Below are positions 7,582 through 40,300 of a stretch of DNA of 64,000 bases, piece after piece (within the stretch, counting starts at the first letter, position 1; every line of letters begins with the position of its first letter). Position numbers and translations under genes: made by a program. The DNA comes from Oncomelania hupensis. Its lineage: Eukaryota; Mollusca; Gastropoda; Littorinimorpha; Pomatiopsidae. The notes under the pieces are model-generated. The model searched no databases. It was not told the origin of the DNA and saw only the letters and a program-made list of their open reading frames with translations. The stretch is taken from positions 6,720,137 to 6,784,136 of the forward strand of contig CM072514.1 in assembly GCA_036898135.1 (NCBI GenBank). Reading direction: 5' to 3'.

Positions 7582-7693
7582 GCTGTATCTGTGCGAGCCC
7601 AAATGTGATTTTGGGATGTGCAGTAACTATACTACAGTGGCTGCCGAGAGTTTCTGGAACTCATCTGATTATCGAAGTTTTAGCTACTACAAG
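7582..7693 (+). CDS. Penultimate exon of fast-evolving Cys-containing gene (copy 1)
   Basis: Exon bounded by acceptor GTTGCAG (ending 7581) and donor AAG|GTAGCG (GT at 7694). The frame begins one base in with LYLCEPKCDFGMCSNY and ends DYRSFSYYK. With the next exon it joins in phase 0 as YYK-INCRCPG. The junction is supported by the intronless relative at 37984-38172, which reads RTK-INCVCPG without a break. Compared with copy 2 (39356-39470), seven substitutions all change residues and one codon is inserted, while the adjoining intron is nearly identical. Family: possibly dermatopontin-like, from the pattern of Arg, aromatic residues and Cys before KINC, but this is weak. Upstream exons, including any signal peptide, were not found. 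Confidence 0.62.
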
Positions 7694-7726
7694 GTAGCGC
7701 TGACATTTTCATTGCAATTGATTGAT

Positions 7727-7811
7727 TTTATTATTATTATTATTATTATTATTATTATTATTATTATTATTATTATTATTATTATTATTATTATTATTAT
7801 TATTATTATTG
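7727..7811 (+). repeat. (ATT)n microsatellite in intron
   Basis: Perfect ATT run inside the intron between exons 7582-7693 and 8311-8457. The copy 2 equivalent (39506-39654) is longer. Confidence 0.95.
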
Positions 7812-8310
7812 TAGAGCTTACAGTTGAAAGTGCTGAGGGAGCATAAGATAGACAATGAATACAGTAACAAGTTACGAAACAAAATCAATGCCAGTAGTAA
7901 ATACGTCAGTCCTAAGCAGACGCTGACATGATTCCTTCTCTTAGTGTCACGTTTCGGCACAGACTGTGGAAGGTAATTCTGTAGGCCGGGTGTAGCACAG
8001 TTCAATAATATAACACCTTTTGCTCGCAACGCCAACCATCCCGAAACCGACCCTGTGAGGCGGACGCGGCGCTCACGAGAAAGAATATGGCAGTACAGAA
8101 GAGATGAGATCGCTCCTGTAGATACTACAACGCTGTCAGTGCAGCCTTGCACGAGCGATAGAACTTTGTGGTCAATTCTCTTCTGCACAGGAAATCAAAT
8201 GCGAGAGCGGATTGACGTAATTATTATCTGTTTCAATAAATAAATTGAACGGACTATTTAGACCGTATAATTTGTATCGGGTAGGCTTAATGTGTAACCT
8301 ATCTGTGCAG

Positions 8311-8457
8311 ATCAACTGCCGCTGTCCCGGCCACAACCAGCCCCTGGCGACTCAGCCCGGTTGGTGGCAAACTTCCACAACCTCCTACCAGACCCACTTT
8401 AACACCACTACAGGCCTCACCTCCGCGTTGCACACATGCTCCGGAGGTACAGTTTGA
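8311..8457 (+). CDS. Terminal exon of fast-evolving Cys-containing gene (copy 1)
   Basis: Begins after acceptor ATCTGTGCAG (ending 8310) in phase 0 and gives 48 codons to TGA at 8455-8457. It starts INCRCPGHNQP, then a divergent part, ending HTCSGGTV. Against copy 2 (40154-40300) the first 11 residues are identical. Of the following residues 19 differ, through 23 base changes, with only one silent change (GTT/GTG before the stop); there is no indel and the stop is conserved. Flanking non-coding DNA differs by about 2-4%. Copy 2 has HYSN then SRWYLC, resembling the repeated motif of dermatopontin-family proteins. Probably a secreted protein, but this is inference. Confidence 0.65.
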   Translation: MNCRCPGHNQPLATQPGWWQTSTTSYQTHFNTTTGLTSALHTCSGGTV

Positions 8458-8577
8458 CACGTCAGGCGGGAGTGGTGTAAGGTTGGGGGGGGGGGGGTTG
8501 GGCAGGGGGTGTGGGTGAATGGGGGTTGTTTGCATAATGATAGAGGCCGCTAATTTTACTCCTGATGGACTTTTCAA

Positions 8578-9368
8578 GGAAATGTCATTATCATCATCAT
8601 CGTCGTCATCATTATCTTTCTCGTCGTCATTATAATCAGTATCATCACGATCTCAAACACCATCACCTTCATAGTAATCATCGCCTATCACATCACACTT
8701 CTCCTTTTCATCCTCCTCACCATCATCACCCCCATCAGCATTATAGTAATAATTACTATCATGCTGATGATAATTATTATTATTATTATCATCATCATCA
8801 TCATCATCATCATCATCATCATCATCATCATCATCGTCGTCAGCATCATCGTCATCATAAATGCCATCATCTTTATAGTCATCATCATCATCATCATCAT
8901 CATTGTCGTCATCAGCATCATCGTCATCATAAATACCATCATCATTATAGTCATCATCATCATAGTAATTATCATCATCATCATCATTGTCGTCGTCAGC
9001 ATCATCGTCATCATAAATACCATCATCATTATAGTCATCATCATCATCATCATCATCATCATCATCATCATTGTCGTCGTCAGCATCATCGTCATCATAA
9101 ATACCATCATCATTATAGTCATCATCACCATAGTAATTATCATCATCATCATCATTGTCGTCGTCAGCATCATCGTCATCATAAATACCATCATCATTAT
9201 ATTCATCATCATCATAGTAATTATCATAATCATCATCATTGTCGTCGTCAGCATCATCGTCATCATAAATATCATCATCATCATAGCCATCATCATTAAC
9301 AGCGTCCTCATGGTCGTCGCCGTCAACTTTGCCTCCATCTATCAGGCTGTCATCATCTATTCAACCAG
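8578..9368 (+). repeat. CAT-based minisatellite, copy 1
   Basis: Higher-order repeat about 80-90 bp long. Each unit contains (CAT)n, then TTGTCGTCGTCAGCATCATC and a tract with TACCATCATCATTATAG. Copy 1 has more units than copy 2 (40410-41095). Poly-His, poly-Ile and poly-Met frames on both strands come from this and are not proteins. Confidence 0.92.
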
Positions 9369-9465
9369 TCATTAAAGTGATTTGTTTGTTGGTAGACGAA
9401 CCCCTGCCTTTCAATGACACGGTGTGCGGAGGTTCCAGAGCCCGCAGAGGACGTCTGGGTCTTCT

Positions 9466-9711
9466 GAAACTGAAACTGAAACTGAAAAACGTTTATTACA
9501 AAAGGATAGTAGCTTTAGGTCCAGAGGTCCTTTCTTCCAGCTAGTCCTTAACACATGCAAATATATAATAGATGTGAGTACATTGTAACAACATACATGA
9601 ACTACAAATAAGTAGCATGAATACTATCAGGATAACATACGCATACACACAAGCAATCATACTCACAAAATTGAAATAAAAGTACTATATATATATATAT
9701 ACAATGTACAA
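9466..9711 (-). mobile_element. Retroposon 3' end inserted only in copy 1
   Basis: 246 bp absent from copy 2, flanked by CTTCT on both sides. On the minus strand it ends GTAATAAACGTTTTTC followed by TTTCAG repeats, the form of a LINE or SINE tail. It shares GCTTTAGGTCCAG with the insertion at 11510-12201. Family not identified. Confidence 0.6.
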
Positions 9712-10002
9712 CTTCTCGAAGAAGAAGACAGCTAAAAGGATTCGAACCTGGCACAGCCCCTGCTACCTTCCTGCTTTTGTGTGATGGCTCTAACCATTGC
9801 TAGTTTATCTACAGACAGTTTGGATCAGGAACATGTTTTTGGAATTTCAATATTCAACCAGACATCATAAATGGTTGTGACGTTTTAGGCATATTTTTTG
9901 TTCATTGAGTAGGCGCATGTTGCCTTCATATTTATTTCTTCACAAGACAGACGCACGCGTTTGTTACACTTATAGTTTACCAGAACGCCGTTGAGATGTT
10001 AT
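9712..10002. other. Non-coding, partly specific to copy 1
   Basis: Similar to copy 2 until about 9869, then unrelated to it. No gene seen. Confidence 0.5.
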
Positions 10003-10116
10003 ATTATTATTATTATCATTATTATTATTATTATTATTATTATTATTATTATTATTATTATTATTATTATTATTATTATTATTATTATTATTATTATTAT
10101 TATTATTATTATTATT
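10003..10116 (+). repeat. (ATT)n microsatellite
   Basis: ATT run that serves as the target of the SINE at 10117-10411. Confidence 0.95.
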
Positions 10117-38678: not shown

Positions 38679-38694
38679 AAAATCAGTTAAATCA

Positions 38695-38987
38695 GGGGTG
38701 TCGGATAGCGCAGTGGTTGGAGCACTCGCTACTGTGTCTCAAGGTAAGCACCGTCCAGTGCGGTTAGCACTTGGATGGGTGACCGCAAAATGTGAAGCGA
38801 CAAATAGCAACGCCCCCAGTTGACTCAACTGTGATTGAGTACCCACTCTCTTAAGGGTGGGGAAGGTAAAGCAGCGAGGGAGAGAGATGGGCATCACCCT
38901 CATTACGCTGGCCCAAGATAAGTGTGGTCTCCAACATCACGCTTCCCTACTGCCACAAGGCTATGGGACTACCTTTACCTTTACCTT
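38695..38987 (+). mobile_element. Composite tRNA/5S SINE, copy 2
   Basis: Same insertion as 6922-7217. Confidence 0.85.
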
Positions 38988-39240
38988 AATTTGTACCAGG
39001 TAAGAAGCAGAACCCTTTTCTTGGAATTGTTCGAACCGCTCATTTGGGAACGAACGACTGTTCAGCGGTTTCCACGAACGCTGGTCAGCTCCAAAGATGT
39101 TTATCTGATGAGGTGTAGGCTTACTAACCGATGACCCTTGCTTCTAGTTGACTTCTGTGTGTATATCGATTAAACTGACAACAATGTGCCTGTTACACCC
39201 CATGTAGTACTAAAATATTGGCCATAAAAAAACAAAAACA

Positions 39241-39352
39241 AATGACGACGACGACGACGATGATGGTAATGACGATGATGATGATGATGATGATGATGAT
39301 GATGATGATGATGATGATGATGTTGATGATGTTGATGATGATGACGATGTTG
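39241..39352 (+). repeat. (GAT)n microsatellite before exon
   Basis: Copy 2 equivalent of 7469-7575, again ending at the exon acceptor. Confidence 0.9.
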
Positions 39353-39355
39353 CAG

Positions 39356-39470
39356 GCGGTATCTGTGCGAGCCCAAATGTGATTTTTGGATGTGCAGTAA
39401 CTATACTACAGTGGCTGCCGAGAGTGTCCGGGACTCATCTGATAATCGAAGTTATAGCAGCTACTACAAG
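39356..39470 (+). CDS. Penultimate exon of fast-evolving Cys-containing gene (copy 2)
   Basis: Acceptor GTTGCAG ends at 39355 and donor GT is at 39471. The frame starts RYLCEPKCDFWMCSNY and ends DNRSYSSYYK, one codon (AGC) longer than copy 1. All seven substitutions relative to copy 1 change residues (L/R, G/W, F/V, W/R, N/D, Y/N, F/Y). Joins the exon at 40154 in phase 0. Splice sites, frame and cysteines are conserved, which argues against a pseudogene. Confidence 0.62.
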
Positions 39471-39505
39471 GTAGCGCTGACATTTTCATTGCAATTGGTT
39501 GATTT

Positions 39506-39654
39506 TATTATTATTATTATTATTATTATTATTATTATTATTATTATTATTATTATTATTATTATTATTATTATTATTGTTATTATTATTATTATTATTA
39601 TTATTATTATTATTATTATTATTATTATTATTATTATTATTATTATTATTATTG
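39506..39654 (+). repeat. (ATT)n microsatellite in intron
   Basis: Long ATT run, interrupted once by GTT. Confidence 0.95.
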
Positions 39655-40153
39655 TAGAGCTTACAGTTGAAAGTGCTGAGGGAGCATAGGATAGACAATG
39701 AATACAGTAAGAACTTAGGAAACAAAATCAATGCCAGTAGTAAATACGTCAGTCTTAAGCAGACGCTGACATGATTCCTTCTCTTAGTGTCACGTTTCGG
39801 CACAGACTGTGGAAGGTAATTCTGTAGGTCGGGTGTGGCACAGTTCAATAATATAACACCTTTTGCTCGCAACGCCAACCATCCCGAAACCGACCCTGTG
39901 AGGCGGACGCGGCGCCCACGAGAAAGAATATGGCAGTATAGAGGAGATGAGATCGCTCCTGTAGATACTACAACGCTGTCAGTGCAGCCTTACACGAGCG
40001 ATAGAACTTTGTGGTCAATTCTCTTCTGCACAGAAACCCAAATGCGAGAGCGGATTGACGTAATTATTATCTGTTTCAATAAATAAATTGAACGGACTAT
40101 TTAGACCGTATAATTTGTATCGGGTAGGCTTAATGTGTAACCTATCTGTTCAG

Positions 40154-40300
40154 ATCAACTGCCGCTGTCCCGGCCACAACCAGCCCATGGCGACTCTGCC
40201 CGGTGTTTGGCGAAGTTCCACAATCTACTACCGGACCCACTATAGCAACACTATAGGCGTCAACTCCCGGTGGTACCTATGCTTCGGAGGTACAGTGTGA
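40154..40300 (+). CDS. Terminal exon of fast-evolving Cys-containing gene (copy 2)
   Basis: Acceptor ATCTGTTCAG ends at 40153; 48 codons to TGA at 40298-40300. Starts INCRCPGHNQP as in copy 1, then a divergent part with YYRTHYSNTIG and SRWYLCFGGTV. The HYSN...SRWYLC pattern resembles the S-x-H-x-N...DR-x-W-x-F-x-C repeat of dermatopontin-family proteins (Limulus amebocyte aggregation factor is a known member). Substitutions relative to copy 1 are about 23 replacement to 1 silent. Role not known; extracellular binding or aggregation would be the family expectation if the assignment holds. Confidence 0.65.
   Translation: MNCRCPGHNQPMATLPGVWRSSTIYYRTHYSNTIGVNSRWYLCFGGTV

What the first reader, a model, noticed from the sequence alone, without database searches (positions are those of the whole stretch)
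7582..40300. Exons that diverge far faster than their introns: diversifying Cys-containing gene in two copies
Seen directly: between the two segment copies the exons 7582-7693/39356-39470 and 8311-8457/40154-40300 carry about 30 replacement changes, one silent change and one in-frame codon insertion. Splice sites, frame, stop and main cysteines are kept. The terminal exon differs by about 16% while flanking non-coding DNA differs by about 2-4%. Known: such replacement excess is the mark of positive selection (venom peptides, immune recognition, gamete recognition). Inference: this is a rapidly diversifying secreted protein family, perhaps undescribed.
Basis: partly seen in the sequence, partly recalled or inferred. 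Interest (0 to 1): 0.9.

Follow-up and report, generated by a model that had tools for sequence, protein, structure and literature searches.

The report
Fast-evolving cysteine-rich protein gene family
In what is probably a mollusc genome, a small family of cysteine-rich protein genes has changed its protein-coding pieces several times faster than the silent DNA around them, the usual mark of proteins caught in an evolutionary contest such as mating, defence or prey capture, and this family could not be matched to a known one.

Summary
Between the two window copies, exon B differs at 24 of 147 bases (16.3%) and exon A at 7 of 112 plus one codon, against 15 of 496 (3.0%) in the intron; NG86 gives 29.5 replacement and 1.5 silent changes. 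A third hypervariable terminal exon, U, lies at 37984-38172 and shares the INCxCPG core with exon B. Site models find positive selection in all three exons (M2a against M1a p 5e-5, 2e-10, 3e-5); intron pseudo-codons do not. Only 3 of 56 amino-acid-invariant columns vary silently. The genome carries haemocyanin domains of the mollusc type. The pattern itself is known from conotoxins, abalone sperm proteins and salamander pheromones. Not shown: expression, 5' exons, signal peptide, tissue. Best reading: a probably secreted six-cysteine recognition or effector family under strong positive selection; reproductive use is a guess.

The parts
7582..7693 (+). Exon A, copy 1 (first base completes a split codon, then 37 codons; three Cys; donor AAG|GTAGCG)
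7694..8310 (+). Intron between A and B, copy 1; 15 of 496 bases differ from copy 2 in the part 7815-8310; its part 7815-8100 is matched at 12 places genome-wide
8311..8457 (+). Exon B, copy 1: terminal coding exon, 48 codons and TGA; fixed ends, hypervariable middle
37984..38172 (+). Exon U (new here), seen only beside copy 2: terminal exon with stop, acceptor CAG at 37981-37983; shares INCxCPG with exon B; this copy has lost one of six Cys
39356..39470 (+). Exon A, copy 2 (one extra codon)
39471..40153 (+). Intron between A and B, copy 2
40154..40300 (+). Exon B, copy 2, with stop
6625..36488 (+). Tandem segment copy 1 (collinear blocks within 6625-9465, 10412-20784 and 35670-36488), interrupted by an LTR-element insertion
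38392..53193 (+). Tandem segment copy 2 (collinear with copy 1)

Best explanation
A low-copy, dispersed and tandemly duplicated gene family of probably a mollusc encodes small proteins whose C-terminal part is a six-cysteine module (exons A+B, three Cys each; or exon U, six Cys in four of five copies). SHOWN: upstream and intron DNA of the copies differs by about 1-6%, while the exons differ by 6-36% through replacement changes that spare the cysteines and the core of the motif; codon models put 37-46% of sites at omega 5-8. INFERRED: A is spliced to B, the protein is extracellular, the cysteines form a disulfide scaffold, and the loops between them meet a partner that keeps changing, so new variants are repeatedly favoured after duplication. 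Most likely use, a guess: reproductive (sperm, seminal or egg-coat) recognition about 0.4, saliva or venom effector about 0.3, immune recognition about 0.3.
For: Pair counts 29.5 replacement to 1.5 silent. M2a against M1a: A p 5e-5, B 2e-10, U 3e-5; on FastTree trees A 5e-4, B 4e-10, U 3e-5, and without p8 and p9 A 0.016, B 1e-11, U 3e-6; B without p7, p8 and p9 p 9e-13. Intron control in three frames p 0.75, 0.41, 0.064. Exon/intron divergence ratio over 28 pairs: A median 5.9, smallest 2.2; B median 6.2, smallest 1.6. Frame open in 8 of 9 exon A copies and 11 of 11 exon B copies; donor kept in 9 of 9; B acceptor AG kept in 10 of 11. Length changes inside the exons in whole codons. Silent variation at 0 of 12, 1 of 13 and 2 of 31 amino-acid-invariant columns of A, B and U. 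The intron piece has 12 matches, 12 of 12 first-look candidates, all at these loci, so this is not a high-copy transposon.
Against: No transcript, no 5' exon, no signal peptide. Collinear homology has variable 5' limits among copies, and three loci (p10-p12) show exon B with no exon A in the 8.4-8.8 kb examined upstream. p4 has a stop in exon A and has lost exon B; p9's exon B acceptor reads CAA; p8 has about 0.36 kb inserted in the last codons of exon B, so its C-terminus differs. The single-omega test is marginal (p 0.018, 0.089, 0.062; 0.11, 0.12, 0.06 on the other trees). Silent differences at same-residue codons of exon A (36 per 331 sites, 0.109) exceed the intron rate, so selection may not be the whole story. 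The likelihood code is my own, on fixed trees, and recombination between paralogues was not tested.
Confidence: 0.8

Rival explanations
1. Focal hypermutation of these exons, or of certain codons, with weak selection.
For: Many codon pairs differ at two or three bases (A 145 of 1008 pairs, B 473 of 2500); exon A silent differences (0.109) exceed the intron rate.
Against: Amino-acid-invariant columns inside the same exons carry almost no silent changes (3 of 56); in the window pair the excess stops at the exon; variable columns lean to codon positions 1 and 2 in A (21, 18, 13) and U (19, 21, 16), less so in B (28, 32, 27).
Confidence: 0.08
2. Old exon diversity with introns and flanks homogenised later by gene conversion or segmental spread; the exons only look fast.
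For: Introns of copies on different contigs differ by only 1.4-6.1% while exons differ by up to 36%; silent differences in exon A are above the intron level.
Against: Silent rates at same-residue codons of B and U (0.071 and 0.037) are nearer the intron level than the replacement level (pN 0.23 for B); low divergence also covers the SINE and flanks.
Confidence: 0.1
3. Decaying exon fragments: dispersed, 5'-truncated pieces of a once functional gene, no longer expressed.
For: No 5' exons found; variable 5' limits, lesions in p4, p8 and p9, p10-p12 without exon A.
Against: Neutral decay gives a replacement rate equal to the intron rate; here it is several times higher with frames open in 11 of 11 exon B copies.
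Confidence: 0.07
4. The two window copies are two haplotypes laid end to end by the assembler.
For: A few per cent divergence is within what outbred marine animals can show (recalled). One further locus sits on a 523-kb contig.
Against: No N in the window, U only beside copy 2, homology ending at the unit borders. Selection would still be needed to explain the exons.
Confidence: 0.04

Closest known systems
Conotoxin gene superfamilies (Conus)
   Same: Mature-peptide exons said to be about three times more divergent than flanking non-coding DNA, with positive selection in a part of the genes (PMC10561478, passages); Cys codons fixed by position between hypervariable loops (PMC3823881, passages), as in columns here.
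   Different: The exons match no Pfam family; the Pfam Conotoxin family found nothing in this genome, but its control found nothing either. The INCxCPG core was not compared with individual conotoxins.
Abalone lysin / sp18 sperm proteins
   Same: Tandem duplicates under positive selection in a gastropod (PMC9022041, passages); its reference list names Metz et al. 1998 on replacement exceeding intron change (title seen only).
   Different: No Egg_lysin match in this genome (control rang nowhere); lysin is not built on six cysteines (recalled).
Plethodontid Modulating Factor (PMF) pheromones
   Same: Coding part diverges by positive selection, about 30% identity, while both UTRs are about 98% alike (PMC6487043, passages).
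   Different: There the UTRs are said to be held by purifying selection; here SINE and flanking DNA are alike too, which fits recent duplication. No direct sequence comparison made.
Accelerated segment switch in exons (ASSET), snake toxins
   Same: p7 exon B shows a stretch replaced wholesale at constant length.
   Different: Known here from a search listing with the start of the abstract only (PMC2711939); most columns here change codon by codon.

Membership tests
Rapidly diversifying exon family (works-like class) | Replacement rate above silent and intron rate, frames kept | tested here: met
Rapidly diversifying exon family (works-like class) | Expressed in a gland, gonad or haemocyte | not testable with these tools
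   No transcript data held
Conotoxin | Match to the Pfam Conotoxin family | tested here: inconclusive
   Exons, scanned apart, match no Pfam family above chance; PF02950 not found in the genome but the control rang nowhere
Conotoxin | Superfamily signal sequence and propeptide | tested here: inconclusive
   No 5' exon found
Abalone lysin / sp18 | Match to Egg_lysin | tested here: inconclusive
   No match in the genome, control rang nowhere; exons match no Pfam family
EGF-like domain | Six Cys with a C-x-C step before the last Cys | tested here: met
   A: 4, 8, 13; B: 3, 5 and one near the end in 11 of 11; U: six Cys in 4 of 5 copies. P-G follows in 10 of 11 B
EGF-like domain | Match to an EGF profile | tested here: not met
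   No EGF family up to E 10 in 8 exon A, 11 exon B and 5 exon U members, exons scanned apart, so split domains could be missed
Secreted protein | Signal peptide | tested here: inconclusive
   No conserved signal-like first exon recognised in the shared unit

The most novel reading that the evidence does not exclude
A previously undescribed, lineage-restricted family of six-cysteine recognition or effector proteins in a mollusc, organised as a repeated unit with two diverging modules in a row (U, then A+B) that are both under strong positive selection, so that each duplication can add two new variable ligands at once.
Probability: 0.35. Interest if true: 0.7.

Novelty: new member of a known kind. 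Interest (0 to 1): 0.5.

Why it matters
If expressed, this is a compact set (12 loci) in which selection can be read exon by exon against nearly identical introns, a clean natural control. It would point to an unknown molecular contest in this animal and give a list of residues likely to face the changing partner.

Tried and rejected
Signal-peptide exon: an open frame about 2.2 kb upstream of exon A's donor in p3, p5 and p7 and 2.9 kb in p8 lies in a dispersed repeat (9675 first-look candidates, 40 scored). Second divergence peak at 18091-18231 in the window pair: only a TTA/CTA microsatellite. Intron read-through of exon A stays open in 8 of 9 copies, poly-Ile in 7 and poly-Ser in p7, so taken as incidental. 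U and A as alternative exons after one donor: phases differ. U in another frame: open in w2 and p7, with stops in p3, p5 and p8. Transposon with variable cargo: intron piece at 12 places only. Species: COX1 not found in the assembly; chromosome lengths not found in papers. Script one search stopped with an error before scoring U (redone); script one search failed on a file name and was rerun.
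Full report
What was claimed and what is there. The two exons and their copies are at the stated places, with GT-AG borders, one frame and a shared stop. Exon A (7582-7693) has one base of a split codon and 37 codons; exon B (8311-8457) has 48 codons and a stop. Copy 2 is 39356-39470 and 40154-40300. Between the copies exon A differs at 7 of 112 bases plus one inserted codon, exon B at 24 of 147, the intron (7815-8310) at 15 of 496, the SINE at 4 of 290 and the first 296 bases of the unit at 9. 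NG86 gives 29.5 replacement and 1.5 silent changes. The most divergent segment by a simple log-odds scan of 7815-8485 is 8344-8441, wholly inside exon B. Exon B against intron: Fisher p 9e-8. Exon A of this pair alone: p 0.15, not significant.

The family. The window is part of a 1.45-Gb assembly of 428 contigs. Exon A DNA is matched at 9 places, exon B at 10 by DNA and 11 by protein, a piece of the intron at 12. A pattern for the exon B/U core with up to two mismatches gives 16 places, 11 exon B and 5 exon U, and none for the reversed control. I name the loci w1 and w2 (window) and p3 to p12. They lie on C4 (3), C13 (6), C6, C15 and C233 (1 each). w1, w2, p3, p5, p6, p7, p8 and p9 have A and B. 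p4 has exon A with a stop and has lost exon B. p10, p11 and p12 have exon B but no exon A in the 8.4-8.8 kb examined upstream. p9's exon B acceptor reads CAA instead of CAG. p8 has about 0.36 kb inserted in the last codons of exon B, giving another C-terminus. So 6 of 12 loci (w1, w2, p3, p5, p6, p7) look intact in the part seen.

A third exon. A divergence profile of the aligned copies showed a second variable island upstream. It is a terminal exon, U, in w2 (37984-38172), p3, p5, p7 and p8; one further locus could not be scored. U and exon B share the core INCxCPG (profile comparison, probability 88%, E 3e-6 over 10 columns); exon A and U do not align. U has six cysteines in 4 of 5 copies, w2 having lost one; A has three and B three. 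The intron phases before A and U differ, so they cannot both follow the same donor in frame; I take them as neighbouring paralogous genes (inference).

Selection. Over 28 pairs of copies with A, B and intron, intron divergence is 1.4-6.1%, exon A 6-28%, exon B 6-36%; the ratio to the intron has median 5.9 (smallest 2.2) and 6.2 (smallest 1.6). My own likelihood code (GY-type codon model, F3x4, fixed tree; p4 left out) gave single-omega values of 2.28 (A, 8 copies), 1.51 (B, 11) and 2.24 (U, 5), with p against omega 1 of 0.018, 0.089 and 0.062; M2a against M1a gave p 5e-5, 2e-10 and 3e-5, with 37-46% of sites at omega 5.3-8.2. With FastTree topologies M2a p was 5e-4, 4e-10 and 3e-5, and the single-omega p 0.11, 0.12 and 0.06; leaving out p8 and p9, M2a p 0.016, 1e-11 and 3e-6. 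Intron pseudo-codons in three frames gave 0.75, 0.41 and 0.064. Exon B without p7, p8 and p9: p 9e-13; five copies only: 2e-9. Silent variation appears at 0 of 12, 1 of 13 and 2 of 31 amino-acid-invariant columns of A, B and U, and each of the 12 conserved Cys columns uses one codon, apart from one U copy that lost the Cys. At same-residue codons the silent rate is 0.109 (A), 0.071 (B) and 0.037 (U); the first is above the intron rate and is a result against a pure selection reading.

Is it a mobile element? The intron piece was found only at the 12 loci, whereas a 601-base block further upstream in p3, p5, p7 and p8 belongs to a repeat with 9675 first-look candidates, 40 of them scored. The shared unit thus carries old repeats but is itself low-copy. 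Intron, SINE, upstream and downstream (10.4-11.5 kb, mostly 3-10% per 60-column window) all diverge little, which fits recent duplication rather than special constraint on the introns. Windows beside exon B run higher (0.14-0.4) where p4's minisatellite is forced into the alignment and where microsatellites follow; the window pair shows no such rise.

Relatives. No Pfam family for the exons up to E 10, save chance-level hits for U (best 0.088); no PDB relative (best E 0.22); no homologue in the protein collection for exon B or U. Those last searches need three shared five-residue words and bound the length (for exon B alone about 27-84 residues, with the longer frame about 43-136; for U about 34-109), and I do not know how many animal proteomes the collection holds. 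The genome has 66 matches over the cut-off to Haemocyan_bet_s (none in 14 control genomes), which I recall as the mollusc haemocyanin domain, so the animal is probably a mollusc; species unknown. COX1 was not found in the assembly (8 of 14 controls rang). Egg_lysin and Conotoxin families gave nothing, with no control genome ringing.

What is known. The pattern is not new. Conotoxin exons for the mature peptide are said to be about three times more divergent than flanking non-coding DNA (PMC10561478, passages). Abalone sperm proteins are tandem duplicates under positive selection, and the reference list of that paper names Metz et al. 1998 on replacement exceeding intron change (PMC9022041, passages). 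PMF pheromones keep UTRs about 98% alike at about 30% amino-acid identity (PMC6487043, passages). Fixed Cys codons beside hypervariable loops are described for conotoxins, where an analysis correcting for homology calls the bias subtle (PMC3823881, passages). I found no paper on this family in the listings of searches of an open-licence library; sequence cannot be searched there, so this is weak.

Mechanism. Shown: duplication, frame-kept replacement at many sites, cysteines and core held. Inferred: an extracellular disulfide-braced protein whose loops meet a changing partner. Guessed: reproduction rather than venom or immunity, because a few tandem and dispersed copies resemble gamete proteins at least as much as toxin arsenals; nothing here tests that.

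Verdict. Real, statistically strong, larger than reported, and a member of a well-known evolutionary kind, with an apparently undescribed protein. Without transcripts and 5' exons the gene model is incomplete.

Noticed in passing
window 20868-35669: LTR element with 1478-base LTRs 99.8% alike, inserted in tandem copy 1 only (copy 2 continues without it around 52363-52367); its gag-like frame has a SCAN domain and its pol frame has integrase before reverse transcriptase (recalled as Gmr1-like order).
   Followed up: partly
window 27592-34191: A second LTR element (636-base LTRs, 99.8% alike) whose end abuts the first element's 3' LTR.
   Followed up: no
window 52202-55041 and 996-2468, minus strand: Another pol region with reverse transcriptase, RNase H and integrase; and an ORF with a SCAN domain.
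   Followed up: no
window 8235-8240 and equivalents: AATAAA 76-84 bases before exon B in 11 of 11 copies, so a shorter transcript ending in the intron is conceivable.
   Followed up: partly
window 7694-7930: The frame of exon A read on into the intron stays open through a microsatellite in 8 of 9 copies (poly-Ile in 7, poly-Ser in p7).
   Followed up: partly
L004 / p4: A 41-base minisatellite in the intron is greatly expanded and exon B is gone.
   Followed up: partly
G000 C13 and C9: 66 haemocyanin-domain matches in several clusters, suggesting expanded haemocyanin genes.
   Followed up: no
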